IMG/VR virus record: IMGVR_UViG_3300021468_000006
Location: 1 to 32,733 of that record
Strand: one strand, 5' to 3'
Length of the DNA stretch: 32,733 nucleotides
Source of the DNA: a virus
Below the pieces are notes generated by a model. That model made no database searches. It was given only the letters and a program-made list of their open reading frames with translations, and was not told where the DNA came from. Positions 2,294 to 27,833 of the stretch are shown here, piece by piece. The translations under genes and the position numbers were made by a program. Within the stretch, counting starts at the first letter, position 1, and the number at the start of each line of letters is the position of its first letter.

Positions 2294-2802
2294 GTACGCA
2301 GGGCCAACGGCAGAGCGCATGCAGAGCGTCCACCCAGGCGCGTGTATGCCTGCGGTTCTTTTTGCCGGGACTGCCTGCGCCGGCTGGCAGCCACCGCGCG
2401 TTTCCTCTGCGGCGCAAGGACGGCAGCCTGGGCGTGGCCGTAGCACCGGACAGCCGCAGGCTGCGCGACTGGGTGAACCTGGTACGTCTGAAGGCTGCCC
2501 AGTGCTGGCGACATCCCCCGCTGCGCGGTGCAGTCTGTATCCGACTGCGTTTCCTGCTGCCCAGGCCCAAGGCACACTATCGCACCGGCAGGCACCAGGG
2601 ACAGATCAAGGCCTCGGCCCCCAGGTGGCCGGTCAAGCGTCCCGACGTGGACAAGCTGGCCCGCGCAGTACTGGACGGCTTGACCGGGGTAGTCGTGGCC
2701 GACGATGCCCAGGTGGTGCGTCTGGACCTGGTCAAACGTTTTGCCGACGTGCGCTCGGGCGTACACGTGCGGGTGGCCTGCCTGGATGGGGATGAGGCTT
2801 GA
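2290..2802 (+). CDS. rusA: RusA-family Holliday junction resolvase
   Basis: The C-terminal half holds the RusA signature, RPDVDKLARAVLDGL followed by ADDAQVVRLD, with the conserved Asp residues that bind magnesium and a basic stretch before them. RusA enzymes are dimeric endonucleases that cut four-way DNA junctions made during phage recombination and before packaging. The ATG chosen overlaps the acetyltransferase stop (ATGA); an in-frame ATG nine bases earlier is also possible. It fits functionally with the DnaQ-like exonuclease and SMC-like ATPase encoded near the other end of the window. Confidence 0.85.
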   Translation: MSTQGQRQSACRASTQARVCLRFFLPGLPAPAGSHRAFPLRRKDGSLGVAVAPDSRRLRDWVNLVRLKAAQCWRHPPLRGAVCIRLRFLLPRPKAHYRTGRHQGQIKASAPRWPVKRPDVDKLARAVLDGLTGVVVADDAQVVRLDLVKRFADVRSGVHVRVACLDGDEA

Positions 2803-2812
2803 GGCTGGAGGC
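2795..2812. repeat. dispersed 18-base repeat, copy 1 (inverted)
   Basis: These 18 bases at the rusA/effector junction are the exact reverse complement of 28575-28592. The second copy is part of a short tandem tract of CCTCCAG units. Matching low-complexity tracts on opposite strands 26 kb apart suggest a dispersed repeat shared with the host genome, but the simple composition weakens the case. Confidence 0.5.
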
Positions 2813-2828
2813 CGGAGACAGAACAGCT

Positions 2829-3992
2829 ATGGCTGCAGAACGACCGTTTGCCTGTATCAAGTGCGGCAAGACCACAGAAGCCAGGCGACTGCCGCCTGGC
2901 TGGCATCGCCTGCCTTCTGGCGAGACACTTTGCGGCCATTGCTGGAAGGAACGCTATGTGCTGCGCGCAATCACTATTCCCGTGGCGGGGCCGGCTGATT
3001 GCGAGTGGTCCGAACTGCGGGAATGGCTGCGTACTGCCTGGCAGGCAACTGTGCGGTTGAGCAACTGGGCAATCACAGAGCTTGCCAAGGCCGACGTGGT
3101 GCGCACGCCGGACATGGAAAAGCTGCCAAAAGCGCCGGCCGTGTATCTGTATCCCGAGGCCCGCAGGCTGTTCCCGGAGCTTGAATCAACCACCGTCTGT
3201 GCCATTCTCCATGCTGTCGAAGGACGCTGGCGCAAACGGCGGTACAACGTGATCTGGTTGGGCAACGAGTCGCTACCGAATTACCGCCTGGATCGGGCTG
3301 TGCTTCCTATCAGGGCAAAAGACTGGCGAGCGTTGGAAGACGAGCAAGGGCGTCCGATGGTGCGCGTTCGGCTGGCCGGGCGACAGGTTCATCTGCGATT
3401 GCGTGGCGGTTATGAATATCGGCGCCAATTGCGGGCCTTCGACCGACTGCTGGCTGGCGAGGCGTTGCGTGCTGAACTGGCGCTGTACGAGCAGAAAGGC
3501 TCCAACGGCGACCATCGGCCGGGTACCGGAAAGACCGGGTGGCTTCTGTGCAAGATGTGTTTGTGGCTGCCGCGCGGAGAGCAGCCGGACGGCGGCCGGG
3601 GGCTGTTGTTTGTAATGCCCGGCGAAGAATGCCTGTTGCAGGCACTGAACGCCAAACGCAACAGGCTATGGGTTATCAACGGTGACCATATCAAGCGGTG
3701 GCAGCGCGAGCACCAGCGGCGTCTGAACCGCTTGCGTGAAGACGCCAAGATGGAAGTGCGCGGCAAGCTGCGCGAGCGGTTCGCCGCTTTGAGAGACAAG
3801 CATCGGCGCCGTATGGATACGGCGGTGCATCAGCTATCGGCACAGGTAGTCAACTATGCCAAACGCAATCGCTTTGCCGGCATCGTATGGCTGGACGCCA
3901 GGCAGCGGGACAGCGATTTCCCGTGGTATAGGTTTGTGACTCAACTCGAATATAAAGCCCACGGACAAGGGCTTTCTTTCCAGGTAATGTAG
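2829..3992 (+). CDS. miniature Cas12/TnpB-like CRISPR effector, RuvC region incomplete
   Basis: This 387-residue protein begins with a zinc ribbon (C9, C12, C35, C38). It continues with Trp- and Arg-rich helices, a beta-rich segment with LRLRGGYEYRRQL (about 189-201) of the kind seen in wedge domains of small type V effectors, and a RuvC-like C-terminus. The latter includes NGDHIKRWQREHQRRLNR (about 284-301), a long basic helix, AGIVWLD with D356, and FPWYRFVTQLEYKAHGQG. These match the order of RuvC-I, bridge-like helix and RuvC-II in TnpB and Cas12. The protein then stops: the target-nucleic-acid zinc finger and the third RuvC aspartate are absent, and the first motif has Glu-Glu instead of a clear Asp. 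It may therefore bind DNA without cutting. The ATG at 2829 is preferred over a TTG at 2799. It is followed 13 bases later by the ParB-like gene and then a CRISPR array on the same strand. Confidence 0.68.
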   Translation: MAAERPFACIKCGKTTEARRLPPGWHRLPSGETLCGHCWKERYVLRAITIPVAGPADCEWSELREWLRTAWQATVRLSNWAITELAKADVVRTPDMEKLPKAPAVYLYPEARRLFPELESTTVCAILHAVEGRWRKRRYNVIWLGNESLPNYRLDRAVLPIRAKDWRALEDEQGRPMVRVRLAGRQVHLRLRGGYEYRRQLRAFDRLLAGEALRAELALYEQKGSNGDHRPGTGKTGWLLCKMCLWLPRGEQPDGGRGLLFVMPGEECLLQALNAKRNRLWVINGDHIKRWQREHQRRLNRLREDAKMEVRGKLRERFAALRDKHRRRMDTAVHQLSAQVVNYAKRNRFAGIVWLDARQRDSDFPWYRFVTQLEYKAHGQGLSFQVM

Positions 3993-4005
3993 GAGGACGA
4001 GAACA

Positions 4006-4689
4006 ATGACAACAGCAACGCTGCCGAAACCGAAGTTGGCGCAGTTGCGATTGAGTGAACTGGTGCTGGACTGGGACTTGTACCCTCGGCAAAACGTTGA
4101 TAGCCAGCACGTAGGCAATCTGTGCGATGCGATTCGCGGGGGCGCCAGCCTGCCGCCGATCATTGTCGATGCCAAGAGCAAGAGAGTTATTGATGGTTTC
4201 CACCGTTACCGTGCCTTTCGGCGGGAATTTGACGGCGACCCCGTCATAGGCGTGGAGTTGCGCGAATATGCCAGCGACCGCGAGATGCTCCTGGATGCGA
4301 TACGGCTTAATGCCTCTCATGGTCGTGCACTTACCAAACAGGACAAAACGCGGTGCCTGTTGCTGGCAAAGAAATATCGCGTGGCAGTCAAAATGGTAGC
4401 GCAGGCATTGTGCATGCGGCCGAGTGATATCAAGGCGCTGGCCGAAGGCAGAGTGGCTTCCAGCAAAAGTGGCAGGCCGGTGCCGCTCAAACGCGGCCTG
4501 GACCACCTGGCTGGTGCTACTTTGACGGACGAACAGATAGATGTGCTGCCGAAGTTGTCGGGGATGCCGGCCACTTTTCATGCCAGGCAGTTGATTTTGT
4601 TGATCGAAACCGGGATGCTGAATACAAGCGACGCGGATACAATGGAAGTGTTGCGTGAACTGTACTGTAAACTTGAAACAGTTATTTGA
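4006..4689 (+). CDS. ParB/Srx-fold DNA-binding protein
   Basis: This 227-residue protein has the ParB N-terminal fold: LSELVLDWDLYPRQN, then PPIIVDAKSKRVIDGFHRYRAF (residues about 50-72), where the GxHR segment is the nucleotide-binding/catalytic box of ParB-like CTPases and nucleases. A helix-turn-helix follows (about 115-150). A strong AGGAGG site precedes the start, 13 bases after the Cas12-like gene, so the two are probably co-translated. The protein may act in phage DNA partition, as a transcription regulator or as a nuclease. Its place between effector and array raises the possibility of a link with the CRISPR module, which is inference. Confidence 0.75.
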   Translation: MTTATLPKPKLAQLRLSELVLDWDLYPRQNVDSQHVGNLCDAIRGGASLPPIIVDAKSKRVIDGFHRYRAFRREFDGDPVIGVELREYASDREMLLDAIRLNASHGRALTKQDKTRCLLLAKKYRVAVKMVAQALCMRPSDIKALAEGRVASSKSGRPVPLKRGLDHLAGATLTDEQIDVLPKLSGMPATFHARQLILLIETGMLNTSDADTMEVLRELYCKLETVI

Positions 4690-4872
4690 CGGCCACTGCC
4701 GGGCCGAAGCCGGACACGGCCGCAATGCCCAGCGCGGCGGCACGGTCCGGGAACGCTGTGAAGAGCCGGGGATATTCCCGCACGGGACAGCCCCCGGGCT
4801 CTTCGGGAATGCCGGTTTGTGGAGTACGAATCCTGCGCAATCCCAAGGATTGGAATGAGTTAAGGAGGTTCA
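4690..4872 (+). ncRNA. CRISPR leader and possible tracrRNA
   Basis: No credible gene lies in these 183 bases. They are rich in structure, including a stem of about ten pairs formed by AGAGCC plus GGG (about 4763-4771) and CCC plus GGGCTCT. Bases 4803-4812 (TCGGGAATGC) are perfectly complementary to positions 16-25 of the CRISPR repeat, and G-U pairs extend this to about 13 pairs. A second stretch, CCTGCGC 4832-4838, a small hairpin AATCC-CAA-GGATT, then GGAATG 4852-4857, can pair with repeat positions 30-36 and 17-22 in the right order for an anti-repeat. No clear promoter is seen. Because the repeat is itself self-complementary, part of this may be chance or a decayed repeat. Confidence 0.4.
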
Positions 4873-5290
4873 GGTGTGCTCACCGCTGCATTCCCGAGGG
4901 AGCGCAGGCATCCCCGCTTGGGTCCAACGGTGGAGCGTGGTGTGCTCACCGCTGCATTCCCGAGGGAGCGCAGGGTGTTCACTGGTCACTTGCAGATAGT
5001 GTTCGGTGTGCTCACCGCTGCATTCCCGAGGGAGCGCAGGGGCTCAAGTTAACTCTTGGATGAAGCGGTGGTGTGCTCACCGCTGCATTCCCGAGGGAGC
5101 GCAGGGGCCACGAAAACAGGAGTAGAGCATGACCGGTGTGCTCACCGCTGCATTCCCGAGGGAGCGCAGGAGCGGCTTGCTCTTGATCGGAAGCGCGCGG
5201 TGTGCTCACCAGCGTATTCCCGAGGGAGCGCAGGACTTTCAAATGGGGTATCAAGTGCGCTTACTTGGGTATTCCCGAAGGAACGCAAGG
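4873..5290 (+). CRISPR. CRISPR array, 7 repeats of 36 bases
   Basis: Repeats start at 4873, 4939, 5005, 5070, 5135, 5199 and 5254. The first five are identical: GGTGTGCTCACC, then GCTGCATTCC, then CGAGGGAGCGCAGG. The sixth differs at a few central bases and the seventh is strongly degenerate and one base longer, which marks the downstream end, so the leader is upstream. Spacers are 30, 30, 29, 29, 28 and a shortened 19 bases, all different, with no convincing match elsewhere in the window. Each repeat can form two hairpins: GGTG-TGCT-CACC at its 5' end and CTGC/GCAG enclosing TTCC-CGAG-GGAG at its 3' end. It runs in the same direction as the Cas12-like gene. No adaptation genes are present. 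Confidence 0.95.
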
Positions 5291-5384
5291 AGCGCTGAGG
5301 AAGGGGGGCGAAAATTTGTAATCCGAGCGGGAAACCGCACGCTCCACCAATCTGCGCGCGAATTTCAAAATCGGGAGGGACCCA

Positions 5385-5723
5385 CTGACTGCCACTGAGC
5401 GACTAAAGCTGCTTCTTTTGCAAGATCGGCGGCTGGCACGGATGGCCGGCGTCTCTAATTCAACTGTCTCCAGATTCTTGTCTGGCCGCTCGACGCTCAG
5501 GGTTTCGACTGCCGATCGTCTGTTCGTTGCCGCTGGGCTGCCGGCGATCTCGCAGGTCCTCTTTGAAATCGTAGGCAGTCGATCTGTTCGATCGCTCTCG
5601 CGCAGTACAGGCCTCAGCCGCAGTGTGTTGCGCCGCCTGCGGCGCAGGCCCTCAGCCTGCCTGCTGCGCACGGCAGATGCCCTGCTCTCGTGCGAGTTGC
5701 GCCCCGGGCGCAAGTCGCCTTGA
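5385..5723 (+). CDS. tandem helix-turn-helix DNA-binding protein
   Basis: Two similar helix-turn-helix units follow one another: RRLARMAGVSNSTVSRFLSG with STADRL, then VRSLSRSTGLSRSVLRRL with RTADAL. This looks like an internal duplication of an XRE/LacI-type domain. The only standard start is a TTG at 5418, but that would remove the first helix (ERLKLLLLQ). A CTG at 5385 lies six bases after a strong GGGAGGG ribosome site and restores it, so I chose CTG. The gene begins about 95 bases after the CRISPR array and could regulate it or the lytic genes. Target unknown. Confidence 0.55.
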   Translation: MTATERLKLLLLQDRRLARMAGVSNSTVSRFLSGRSTLRVSTADRLFVAAGLPAISQVLFEIVGSRSVRSLSRSTGLSRSVLRRLRRRPSACLLRTADALLSCELRPGRKSP

Positions 5724-26387: not shown

Positions 26388-26416
26388 TTGACAAAAAACT
26401 AAGCCGTGGCTTATCT
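26388..26416 (+). promoter_or_regulatory. excisionase-like gene promoter with operator
   Basis: TTGACA (26388-26393) and TTATCT (26411-26416) are 17 bases apart. The spacer and -10 box contain the palindrome TAAGCC-GT-GGCTTA (26400-26413). The start codon lies only about 8 bases after the -10 box, so the transcript is leaderless or nearly so if this promoter is used. Confidence 0.65.
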
Positions 26417-26424
26417 TGGGAGGC

Positions 26425-26631
26425 ATGAGCGTGACGATTCAACCAACGGAACCGCTGTTTTCTGTGCGTGAGGCCGCTGCTGCGCTTGGAGTTACCCCCG
26501 GAAGGATTCACCAATTGGTGCTTGCGGGCCGCATTTCTGCCATTAAACCAGCACGCGACTTGCTTATCCCGAAATCGGAAGTCGAACGCTATCGGCGAGA
26601 TAGACGGCCATATCGTAAGTCTAATCGCTGA
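26425..26631 (+). CDS. excisionase-like HTH protein
   Basis: This 68-residue protein has the winged-HTH of the excisionase/MerR-like family (FSVREAAAALGVTPGRIHQL; AISAIKPARDLLIPKSEVERY), then a basic tail. Such proteins bend attachment-site DNA or repress promoters. Its location next to attP and upstream of integrase supports a role in excision control. ATG 26425 is leaderless; GTG 26431 with GGAGG seven bases upstream is an alternative. Confidence 0.78.
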   Translation: MSVTIQPTEPLFSVREAAAALGVTPGRIHQLVLAGRISAIKPARDLLIPKSEVERYRRDRRPYRKSNR

Positions 26632-26671: not shown

Positions 26672-26700
26672 TTGACAAAAACTAGGCCACGACTTAGAAT
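26672..26700 (+). promoter_or_regulatory. strong integrase-leader promoter with same operator motif
   Basis: TTGACA (26672-26677) and TAGAAT (26695-26700) are exactly 17 bases apart. CTAGGCC and ACTTAG in the spacer form an imperfect palindrome (26682-26697) matching the half-site CTAAGCC of the previous promoter. It starts a long structured leader of about 220 bases before the integrase ATG. Confidence 0.72.
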
Positions 26701-26745: not shown

Positions 26746-26781
26746 GGTGCTCTCACCGGCAGGTTCCCGAGAGAGCGCAGA
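26746..26781 (+). other. solitary CRISPR-repeat-like element in the integrase leader
   Basis: This 36-base stretch matches the array repeat at about 27 of 36 positions without gaps. GGTG-CTCT-CACC keeps the first hairpin with a changed loop, and TTCCCGAGAGAGCGCAG differs from the repeat at one base of 17. It lies about 40 bases after the predicted transcript start. Upstream, GAGCAC (26720-26725) and GGCCG can pair with its 5' part. There is only one copy, so it is not an array. Confidence 0.7.
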
Positions 26782-26822
26782 AGACGGACCGACGGCTATG
26801 GCGGGCCGGCGAAGAATAATGG

Positions 26823-26929
26823 ATGGTGCCCACGGAGCGGTGCGGGCTGTACGTCAGGGGCCGCTCCCACAGCAGCAGGAGGCCGCCAAGGGGCGGCCAC
26901 ACTCTGATGCTGCTGTGAGGTGGCACCAT
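26823..26929 (+). promoter_or_regulatory. three-helix structured leader covering the integrase start
   Basis: Four perfect or near-perfect helices nest together. ATGGTGCC plus AC (26823-26833) pairs with GT plus GGCACCAT (26920-26929), covering the start codon. GGAGCGG (26834-26840) pairs with CCGCTCC (26861-26867). CACAGCAGCA (26868-26877) pairs with TGCTGCTGTG (26908-26917), and inside it GGCCGCC pairs with GGCGGCC around AAGG. The ribosome site GAGG (26917-26920) is largely shut within the closing stems. This looks like a translational switch. Confidence 0.65.
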
Positions 26930-27833
26930 GAGACTTTCGGAGCTTCTCGAACTCTATCTGCGCACCCGCCAGCTTGCTCCGGGCACGATCTCGGCGATCC
27001 GGCGGGCGGTGCGCAAAATCGGCGAAGTGCTGGGCGATCCGTCATTGACCTCGCTGAACGAGGTGCAAATCTACAGGCTCTACGCTGTTTTGTGCGACCA
27101 GGGCCAGGGGCAGGCAGCCACACAGGCCGTGCTCAAGTGGCTGCGCGCGCTGCTCAACGAGGCCTGGAGACTGCGGCTGATCGACGAACTGCCGAGGACT
27201 TGGCCAAAAGTGGTACAGCCGCGGCGCATGCCCGATGCGTGGACGCCGCAGCAGGTCGGTCGACTGTATCATGTGGCCGTGGAACAGCCCGGGCGGATCG
27301 GCCCGCACAGGGCCGGCGACTGGTGGCGGGCGTTCTTGTGCGTCTCCTGGGATACAGGCCTGCGGGTCTCACAGACCATGAGCCTGCGCCTGGAGGATGT
27401 GGACTTCGACCGGCGCTTCTTGCTGGTGCGCTATCGGCCGAACAGCAAGAGCATCAACGACCAGATCAAACCGCTTTCCACGCCAACGGTCGAAGCGGTG
27501 CGGACGATCGCCAGGCCGCGGCGCGAGCGACTTTTCGAGTGGCCCGAGTGGCCGCGCTCGCGCCGGGATTTCTTCTCCACGTTTCGCTACCTGTGCCTGC
27601 TGGCCGGCATCCCCTGTCCGCGAAACCAGCACGGCGAACTTACACACAAGCTCAGGCGCAGCAGCACCACGATGGCTGCACTAAAAAGCCTGGAAGAGGC
27701 ACGCCGGCACGCCGGGCACACGCGTGTGGAAACCACGCTGCGCCACTACGTGGACCCGCGCGTGGCGGCGCCTGGTTCACCGGCAGTGCCGCCGCTGGAA
27801 AAGCTCAACGGCAGGCAAAAAACACTGTTCTGA
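26928..27833 (+). CDS. int: tyrosine recombinase integrase
   Basis: This 301-residue protein has an N-terminal SAM-like core-binding domain and a catalytic domain with Arg146 (DTGLRVSQ), Lys174 (PNSKSI), His240 and Arg243 (LTHKLRRSS), His264 (HAGHTRVETT) and the nucleophile Tyr274 (LRHYVDPR). It lacks a long N-terminal arm-binding domain, so it is on the short side for phage integrases. It should recombine attP with the host tRNA-Ile gene. Its start lies inside the structured leader. Confidence 0.92.
   Translation: MRLSELLELYLRTRQLAPGTISAIRRAVRKIGEVLGDPSLTSLNEVQIYRLYAVLCDQGQGQAATQAVLKWLRALLNEAWRLRLIDELPRTWPKVVQPRRMPDAWTPQQVGRLYHVAVEQPGRIGPHRAGDWWRAFLCVSWDTGLRVSQTMSLRLEDVDFDRRFLLVRYRPNSKSINDQIKPLSTPTVEAVRTIARPRRERLFEWPEWPRSRRDFFSTFRYLCLLAGIPCPRNQHGELTHKLRRSSTTMAALKSLEEARRHAGHTRVETTLRHYVDPRVAAPGSPAVPPLEKLNGRQKTLF

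What the first reader, a model, noticed from the sequence alone, without database searches (positions are those of the whole stretch)
4690..4872. Candidate tracrRNA or scoutRNA upstream of the array
A 10-base perfect complement to repeat positions 16-25 and a second split complement (CCTGCGC and GGAATG around a small hairpin) lie in a structured non-coding gap between ParB and the first repeat. Small type V effectors usually need such an RNA.
Basis: partly seen in the sequence, partly recalled or inferred. Interest (0 to 1): 0.7.

Follow-up and report, generated by a model that had tools for sequence, protein, structure and literature searches.

The report
Phage tracrRNA for nuclease-dead Cas12f
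The gap before this phage's CRISPR array encodes a conserved, structured helper RNA (a tracrRNA) that pairs with the array's repeats and very probably loads them onto a phage Cas12f-like protein that has lost its DNA-cutting residues, so the phage seems to carry a programmable DNA-binding rather than DNA-cutting system.

Summary
Supported, with one correction. Window 4690-4797 is the core of a conserved non-coding RNA (no Rfam 15 match), found at about 20 loci, nearly all beside one family of small Cas12f-fold proteins. A covariance model built without the window and its closest relative finds the window at E=8e-9; 15 of 16 base pairs show compensatory changes. Two protein-blind RNA-pattern scans of IMG/VR each uncovered a new effector homologue. 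The 10-base complement (TCGGGAATGC, 4803-4812, to repeat positions 16-25; p=0.005) is part of a longer antirepeat at about 4791-4833 (p=0.001). Across 16 loci the tails pair preferentially with their own, dissimilar repeats. The 'split complement' (CCTGCGC...GGAATG) is present but not conserved, so probably chance. This is a tracrRNA, not a scoutRNA. In most relatives the core abuts the first repeat; in four bacterial genomes it appears to head an arrayless single guide. The effector has the Cas12f fold (Z=24) but lacks the RuvC-I aspartate and the RuvC-III/zinc end; no Cas1/Cas2 was found. Most likely it binds DNA under RNA guidance without cutting. A solo repeat at 26746-26781, behind a promoter-like site near the integrase, looks like a second guide. 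Targets are unknown; nothing was tested by experiment.

The parts
4690..4797 (+). Conserved core of the tracrRNA: P1 hairpin 4690-4706, variable middle, P5 stem 4766-4771 with 4792-4797 closing an AUA motif and an inner hairpin (4776-4780 with 4783-4787)
   Evidence: Held-out covariance model R2 finds it at E=8.4e-9; 96.7% of cells paired and 15/16 pairs with changes on both sides over 25 sequences; 96.3% identical to L003
4791..4833 (+).
   Evidence: RNAduplex -42.3 kcal/mol with own repeat, 0.1% of shuffled repeats as good; own repeat ranks first of 16 loci
4832..4857 (+).
   Evidence: Alignment with L003
4836..4872 (+). Poorly conserved stretch between tracrRNA and array, possibly leader
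   Evidence: 61.5% identity to L003
4873..5289 (+). CRISPR array: 36-nt repeats at 4873, 4939, 5005, 5070, 5135, 5199 (4 mismatches) and degenerate 5254 (11 mismatches); spacers 28-30 nt, the last 19 nt
2799..3992 (+). Effector: 397-aa Cas12f-fold protein without the RuvC-I aspartate and without the RuvC-III/zinc C-terminus; N-terminal CxxC..CxxC motif
   Evidence: AF2 pLDDT 87.9; VIA-align Z=24.0 to AsCas12f over 308 residues, model 54-397 with chain 1-363; PADLOC Cas12f 6.3e-15; alignments
4006..4689 (+). ParB-like gene between effector and tracrRNA; also present in L003 and L001, not detected at L018 or L034
   Evidence: PHROG ParB-like 1.3e-9
26746..26781 (+). Solo repeat (9/36 mismatches to the array repeat), candidate stand-alone crRNA; putative guide starts at 26782
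   Evidence: RNAduplex with the tracrRNA tail -43.0 kcal/mol, shuffled -25.2, p=0.0005
26672..26700 (+). Sigma70-like promoter TTGACA-17-TAGAAT upstream of the solo repeat
   Evidence: 11 of 12 consensus bases; 2 promoter-like sites found in the region against 0.2 expected

Best explanation
Positions 4690 to about 4833 encode a tracrRNA. Its core folds into conserved hairpins that the small Cas12f-like effector is expected to bind (inferred). Its 3' tail pairs with the repeat part of the CRISPR RNAs made from the array at 4873-5289 (pairing shown by computation and comparison, not by experiment), giving a tracrRNA:crRNA guide. The effector keeps the Cas12f fold but lacks the RuvC-I aspartate and the RuvC-III/zinc end, so the guided complex most likely binds DNA without cutting it and acts as a roadblock or repressor (inferred). 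The RNA is probably co-transcribed with the upstream effector-ParB genes (inferred: no promoter-like site near the gap). In relatives the same core is fused to the first repeat, or appears to head an arrayless single guide, so the separate tracrRNA here is one of several layouts of the same guide RNA.
For: Core 96.3% identical to L003 while flanking ORFs are 72.4%. Protein-blind RNA-pattern scans of IMG/VR uncovered L018 and L034, both with effector homologues nearby. Held-out covariance model finds window at 8.4e-9 and L003 at 2.6e-9; the best hit in the non-effector control loci is 0.2. Covariation score 0.800 against 0.200 shuffled, with slid controls of at most 0.136. The RNA is found in 19 of 20 records or genomes holding the effector. 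Tail pairs with own repeat: sum -330 against -270 for the best of 20,000 random assignments; window, L003, L018, L057 and the second L003-phage locus, whose tails are not simply part of a repeat, rank 1, 2, 1, 1, 2 of 16. Effector fold Cas12f. No Cas1 or Cas2 in 15 phage records.
Against: No transcript or biochemistry. The L003 antirepeat alone is not stronger than chance against shuffled repeats (p=0.3). Within the window tracrRNA the antirepeat competes with an internal GAAGAGC/GCUCUUC stem. No promoter-like site in 3900-5500. No convincing targets for the spacers. For loci where the core abuts the array, preferential pairing partly reflects the repeat's own palindrome.
Confidence: 0.87

Rival explanations
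1. ScoutRNA-like RNA: a short structured RNA that aids crRNA maturation with only a few bases of pairing to the repeat, as described for Cas12c/Cas12d systems.
For: Small structured RNA beside a type V array; the core itself is not complementary to the repeat.
Against: The tail pairs with most of the repeat in two arms, the pairing is specific to the own repeat across loci, and the effector fold is Cas12f, not Cas12c/d.
Confidence: 0.04
2. The gap is only the array leader with a promoter or DNA-level regulatory element, for example a ParB site; the complement is chance.
For: It sits directly upstream of the array next to a ParB-like gene; the 10-base match alone is p=0.005.
Against: Base-pair covariation shows selection on RNA structure; the RNA is found at loci where no ParB-like gene was detected (L018, L034) and in bacterial loci without an array; no promoter-like site found.
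Confidence: 0.04
3. The RNA is an omega-RNA-like relic of a TnpB ancestor and no longer works with the array; the array uses crRNA alone.
For: It lies just 3' of the effector in most loci, as omegaRNAs do; in four bacterial genomes the core is followed by one hairpin and a possible guide, without an array.
Against: Tails track the sequence of the array repeats across loci, including the separate tails in window, L018 and L057, which a relic would not do.
Confidence: 0.05

Closest known systems
Type V-F CRISPR-Cas (Cas12f, AsCas12f1 and others)
   Same: Cas12f fold over 308 residues (Z=24), 36-nt repeats, complex guide RNA made of tracrRNA and crRNA, small effector
   Different: No RuvC-I aspartate, no RuvC-III/zinc end, an extra N-terminal CxxC..CxxC segment, phage-borne, no Cas1/Cas2, core RNA without an Rfam match
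Natural nuclease-deactivated Cas12f (PDB 9n9c, 9n9m)
   Same: Sequence profile match (E=6.5e-6); fold match Z 18.5; both are aligned to the end of a chain that stops at residue 365
   Different: About 14% identity; whether the present family acts with a sigma factor was not tested, and here the guides come from phage CRISPR arrays
TldR, TnpB-like nuclease-dead repressors of phages (PMC13418256)
   Same: Phage-encoded, nuclease-dead, RNA-guided member of the TnpB/Cas12 superfamily; in some loci guide scaffold just 3' of the effector with a single guide
   Different: Here CRISPR arrays with several spacers and a tracrRNA with antirepeat; fold closer to Cas12f than to TnpB (Z 24 against 13.5)
Cas12m (type V-M)
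   Same: Type V effector with inactive RuvC; DNA binding as a roadblock without cutting (PMC11013384)
   Different: Cas12m uses no tracrRNA (PMC11013384) and is larger (596 aa for the Mycolicibacterium protein)

Membership tests
tracrRNA (class 2 CRISPR) | Antirepeat complementary to the CRISPR repeat | tested here: met
   Window -42.3 kcal/mol, p=0.001; L018 -48.8, p=0.001; L003 alone not significant; cross-locus test
tracrRNA (class 2 CRISPR) | Conserved structured RNA encoded at the effector/array locus | tested here: met
tracrRNA (class 2 CRISPR) | Transcribed and bound by the effector with crRNA | not testable with these tools
   Needs RNA-seq and pull-down
Type V-F (Cas12f) | Cas12f fold of the effector | tested here: met
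   Z=24.0 to AsCas12f 8j12_B, 308 residues, rmsd 4.5
Type V-F (Cas12f) | Intact RuvC catalytic residues | tested here: not met
   No Asp at the RuvC-I position that aligns with GVDMG of OsCas12f in the 19 aligned homologues; the window protein ends at AsCas12f residue 363, before RuvC-III
Type V-F (Cas12f) | CRISPR array at the locus | tested here: met
   absent in four bacterial loci
TldR | Nuclease-dead RNA-guided TnpB homologue | tested here: inconclusive
   RuvC residues missing, but fold nearer Cas12f than TnpB
TldR | Represses a target promoter | not testable with these tools
   No targets identified; seeds as short as 6 nt can suffice in TldR (PMC13418256)
Cas12m (V-M) | Guided by crRNA alone, no tracrRNA | tested here: not met
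   Antirepeat RNA present; absence of tracrRNA in Cas12m from PMC11013384
ScoutRNA (Cas12c/d) | Only a few bases of complementarity to the repeat | tested here: not met
   Long two-arm duplex; the defining feature is from my own knowledge

The most novel reading that the evidence does not exclude
The phage runs an RNA-guided regulatory network: one nuclease-dead Cas12f-like protein served by a trans-acting tracrRNA, by CRISPR arrays and by dispersed extra guide loci (the solo crRNA between the HTH_17 and integrase genes here; a second tracrRNA-array next to an HTH_17 gene in the L003 phage; four tracrRNAs with arrays of 12-nt mini-repeats in the L057 phage), used to switch phage or host genes, for example the lysis-lysogeny decision, rather than for immunity.
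Probability: 0.35. Interest if true: 0.9.

Novelty: new variant of a known kind. Interest (0 to 1): 0.76.

Why it matters
It defines a guide-RNA family with no Rfam match and links it to a naturally nuclease-dead, phage-borne branch of Cas12f-like proteins. The branch shows three layouts of the same RNA (apparent fused single guide, core joined to the first repeat, separate tracrRNA), which makes the question of how tracrRNAs arise directly testable. If the inferred binding without cutting is right, it also points to phages using programmable DNA binding with multi-spacer arrays for gene control or rivalry between phages.

Tried and rejected
GenBank phages and PLSDB plasmids: no protein match to the effector; phages: no DNA match to the gap or the array. 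Exact repeat scan of IMG/VR: nothing. Rfam: nothing at 3900-5400, and only a tRNA in L034 and L068. Protospacers: no convincing match of window spacers or solo guide in the window itself nor of array spacers among fetched loci; the guides read for two arrayless bacterial loci match only themselves in their genomes at up to 3 mismatches. First genome-contig scan with a two-sequence profile found nothing; the five-sequence profile found five. Sigma70 promoter near the tracrRNA: none. Split complement as part of the antirepeat: rejected, not conserved. Scout RNA: rejected. ParB as a constant partner: rejected, not detected in L018 or L034. Effector tree: poorly resolved, so it does not tell whether the separate tracrRNA arose once or more than once. 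Folding energy alone is weak evidence: z -2.35 window, -1.58 L003, -0.74 L001. Inactivated subtypes V-O and V-P (named in PMC12669027) could not be compared by sequence, as no models for them were at hand.

Full report
What was claimed and what is there. The window is a phage record (G000, 32,733 bases). A 397-aa effector ORF (2799-3992) and a ParB-like ORF (4006-4689) precede a gap and six good 36-nt repeats plus a degenerate seventh (4873-5289). The second, split complement (CCTGCGC 4832-4838, GGAATG 4852-4857) is also in the sequence.

Comparison with a close relative. IMG/VR locus L003 carries the same gene order with an 80% identical effector and 77% identical ParB-like protein. Its repeat differs from the window's at 8 of 36 positions. 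The gap core 4690-4797 is 96.3% identical, while the two flanking ORFs are each 72.4% identical in DNA, and the stretch beyond the core falls to about 60%. That is the pattern of a conserved non-coding RNA followed by a part that changes with the repeat. The split complement is not kept (CTGTCGC, AAAGG) although the repeat's 3' end is unchanged, so I set it aside.

A protein-blind test. Two scans of IMG/VR with short patterns of the RNA core, without any protein information, returned the known loci and uncovered one new locus each, L018 and L034. Both encode a homologue of the effector nearby, at 43% and 37% identity; the other hits lie in unrelated sequence. A profile of five effectors then found further relatives in IMG/VR and five in bacterial MAGs, from Acidobacteriota, Planctomycetota and Verrucomicrobiota.

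The RNA family. The core was collected from these loci. A covariance model built without the window and L003 finds them at E=8.4e-9 and 2.6e-9; the next hit is L069, itself an effector locus (0.03), and the best hit in a non-effector control locus is 0.2. Over 25 sequences, 96.7% of cells form standard pairs, 15 of 16 pairs have changes on both sides, and the covariation score is 0.800 against 0.200 for shuffles and at most 0.136 for slid controls. That alignment was fitted to the model's structure and so leans towards it, but a count made by hand on 17 loci agrees: the P1 hairpin pairs in 85 of 85 cells. Rfam has no matching family. The RNA is found in 19 of 20 records or genomes holding the effector; the exception is L069, where only a weak hit was seen.

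The antirepeat. In the window the tail after the core pairs with its own repeat in two arms at -42.3 kcal/mol (shuffled repeats -26.3 +/- 4.1, p=0.001); L018 gives -48.8 (p=0.001); L003 alone is not significant (p=0.3). Over 16 loci the own repeat is the best partner in 10 and among the best three in 14; the sum of own pairings is -330 kcal/mol against -270 for the best of 20,000 random assignments. In most of these loci the core abuts the first repeat, so this partly reflects the palindrome within the repeat. The tails that are not simply part of a repeat (window, L003, L018, L057 and the second locus of the L003 phage) rank 1, 2, 1, 1 and 2.

Layouts. (a) Core directly followed by the array's first repeat, which supplies one strand of the P5 stem: L001, L034, L053, L055, L058 and others. 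(b) Separate tracrRNA with its own P5 strand and antirepeat: window, L003, L018. (c) Core followed by a single hairpin and a possible guide, without an array, in four bacterial MAGs: L067, L068, L070, L071; that these work as single guides is inferred. (d) In the L057 phage, four cores and arrays of 12-nt mini-repeats GGAAGCTGCGGG, with 42 copies on the record at up to one mismatch against one for the control pattern. Each phage was found to hold one effector, in two pieces in two records, although several hold more than one RNA locus.

The effector. AlphaFold2 gives a confident model (mean pLDDT 87.9). Its best structural match is AsCas12f (Z=24.0, 308 residues), aligned to chain residues 1-363; TnpB reaches Z 13.5. 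Against OsCas12f the RuvC-I motif GVDMG aligns with residues without the aspartate, and none of 19 homologues has it. The window protein ends before the zinc ribbon and RuvC-III. From knowledge of the family I conclude that it should not cut DNA; this was not tested. No Cas1 or Cas2 was found in 15 phage records, with working positive controls, although some records may be fragments.

Mechanism. Shown by sequence analysis: the conserved RNA, its structure, the antirepeat, its linkage to the effector, and the loss of RuvC residues. Inferred: transcription (probably with the effector operon, since no promoter-like site is near), binding of the RNA by the effector, guided DNA binding without cutting, and use for silencing. 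Precedents are Cas12m, which blocks without cutting but lacks a tracrRNA (PMC11013384), TldR, a phage-borne RNA-guided transcription factor family whose guides work with seeds as short as 6 nt (PMC13418256), and other inactivated type V subtypes (PMC12669027). Targets remain unknown.

A second guide in the window. A solo repeat at 26746-26781 (9 of 36 mismatches) follows a TTGACA-17-TAGAAT promoter-like site (26672-26700) and lies between an HTH_17 gene (26416-26631) and the integrase gene (26928-27833). It pairs with the tracrRNA tail as strongly as the array repeats do (-43.0 kcal/mol, p=0.0005). The L003 phage has a second tracrRNA and small array also beside an HTH_17 gene. This suggests, without proving it, guides devoted to phage gene control.

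Verdict. The gap is a tracrRNA gene. As a kind it is known; this RNA family, its layouts and its pairing with a nuclease-dead phage Cas12f-like protein appear to be a new variant, as far as the held libraries show.

Noticed in passing
window 26746-26781: Solo CRISPR-like repeat between an HTH_17 gene and the integrase gene, behind a TTGACA-17-TAGAAT promoter-like site; pairs with the tracrRNA tail at -43.0 kcal/mol.
   Followed up: partly
L074 1895-2420 (minus strand; L003 phage, G004:6811-6919): Second tracrRNA core followed by about four repeats of a different sequence, next to an HTH_17 gene, in the same phage as L003.
   Followed up: partly
L057, L075-L078 (G010): Four tracrRNA cores and arrays of 12-nt mini-repeats GGAAGCTGCGGG spaced mostly 20-35 nt; about 42 copies on one 46.6-kb phage record.
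   Followed up: partly
L067, L068, L070, L071: Bacterial MAG loci where the RNA core is followed by one hairpin and a possible guide, with no array. L068 has a tRNA gene just downstream.
   Followed up: partly
L018 2139-2174: Inverted, 86% complementary copy of the repeat just after the array, which could act as a terminator hairpin or a second antirepeat.
   Followed up: no
window 4862-4869: AAGGAGGT, a Shine-Dalgarno-like sequence, directly before the first repeat; the L003 alignment keeps only GAGTTAAG nearby.
   Followed up: no
window 26388-26417 and 26672-26700: Two promoter-like sites with similar sequence between and around the hexamers (AACTAAGCC..GGCTTA, AACTAGGCC..GACTTA), possibly one operator for the HTH_17 protein.
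   Followed up: no
L053 7479-7517 and 7628-7666: Two spacers of one array share 36 identical bases.
   Followed up: no
window 3990-3992: The effector ORF stops at a TAG about 20 codons before the end of the L003 protein; the profile match runs on past the stop, so the window's C-terminus may be slightly shortened.
   Followed up: no
L018 2577-3212 (minus strand): A 212-aa ORF without a Pfam match takes the place of the ParB-like gene between effector and tracrRNA.
   Followed up: no
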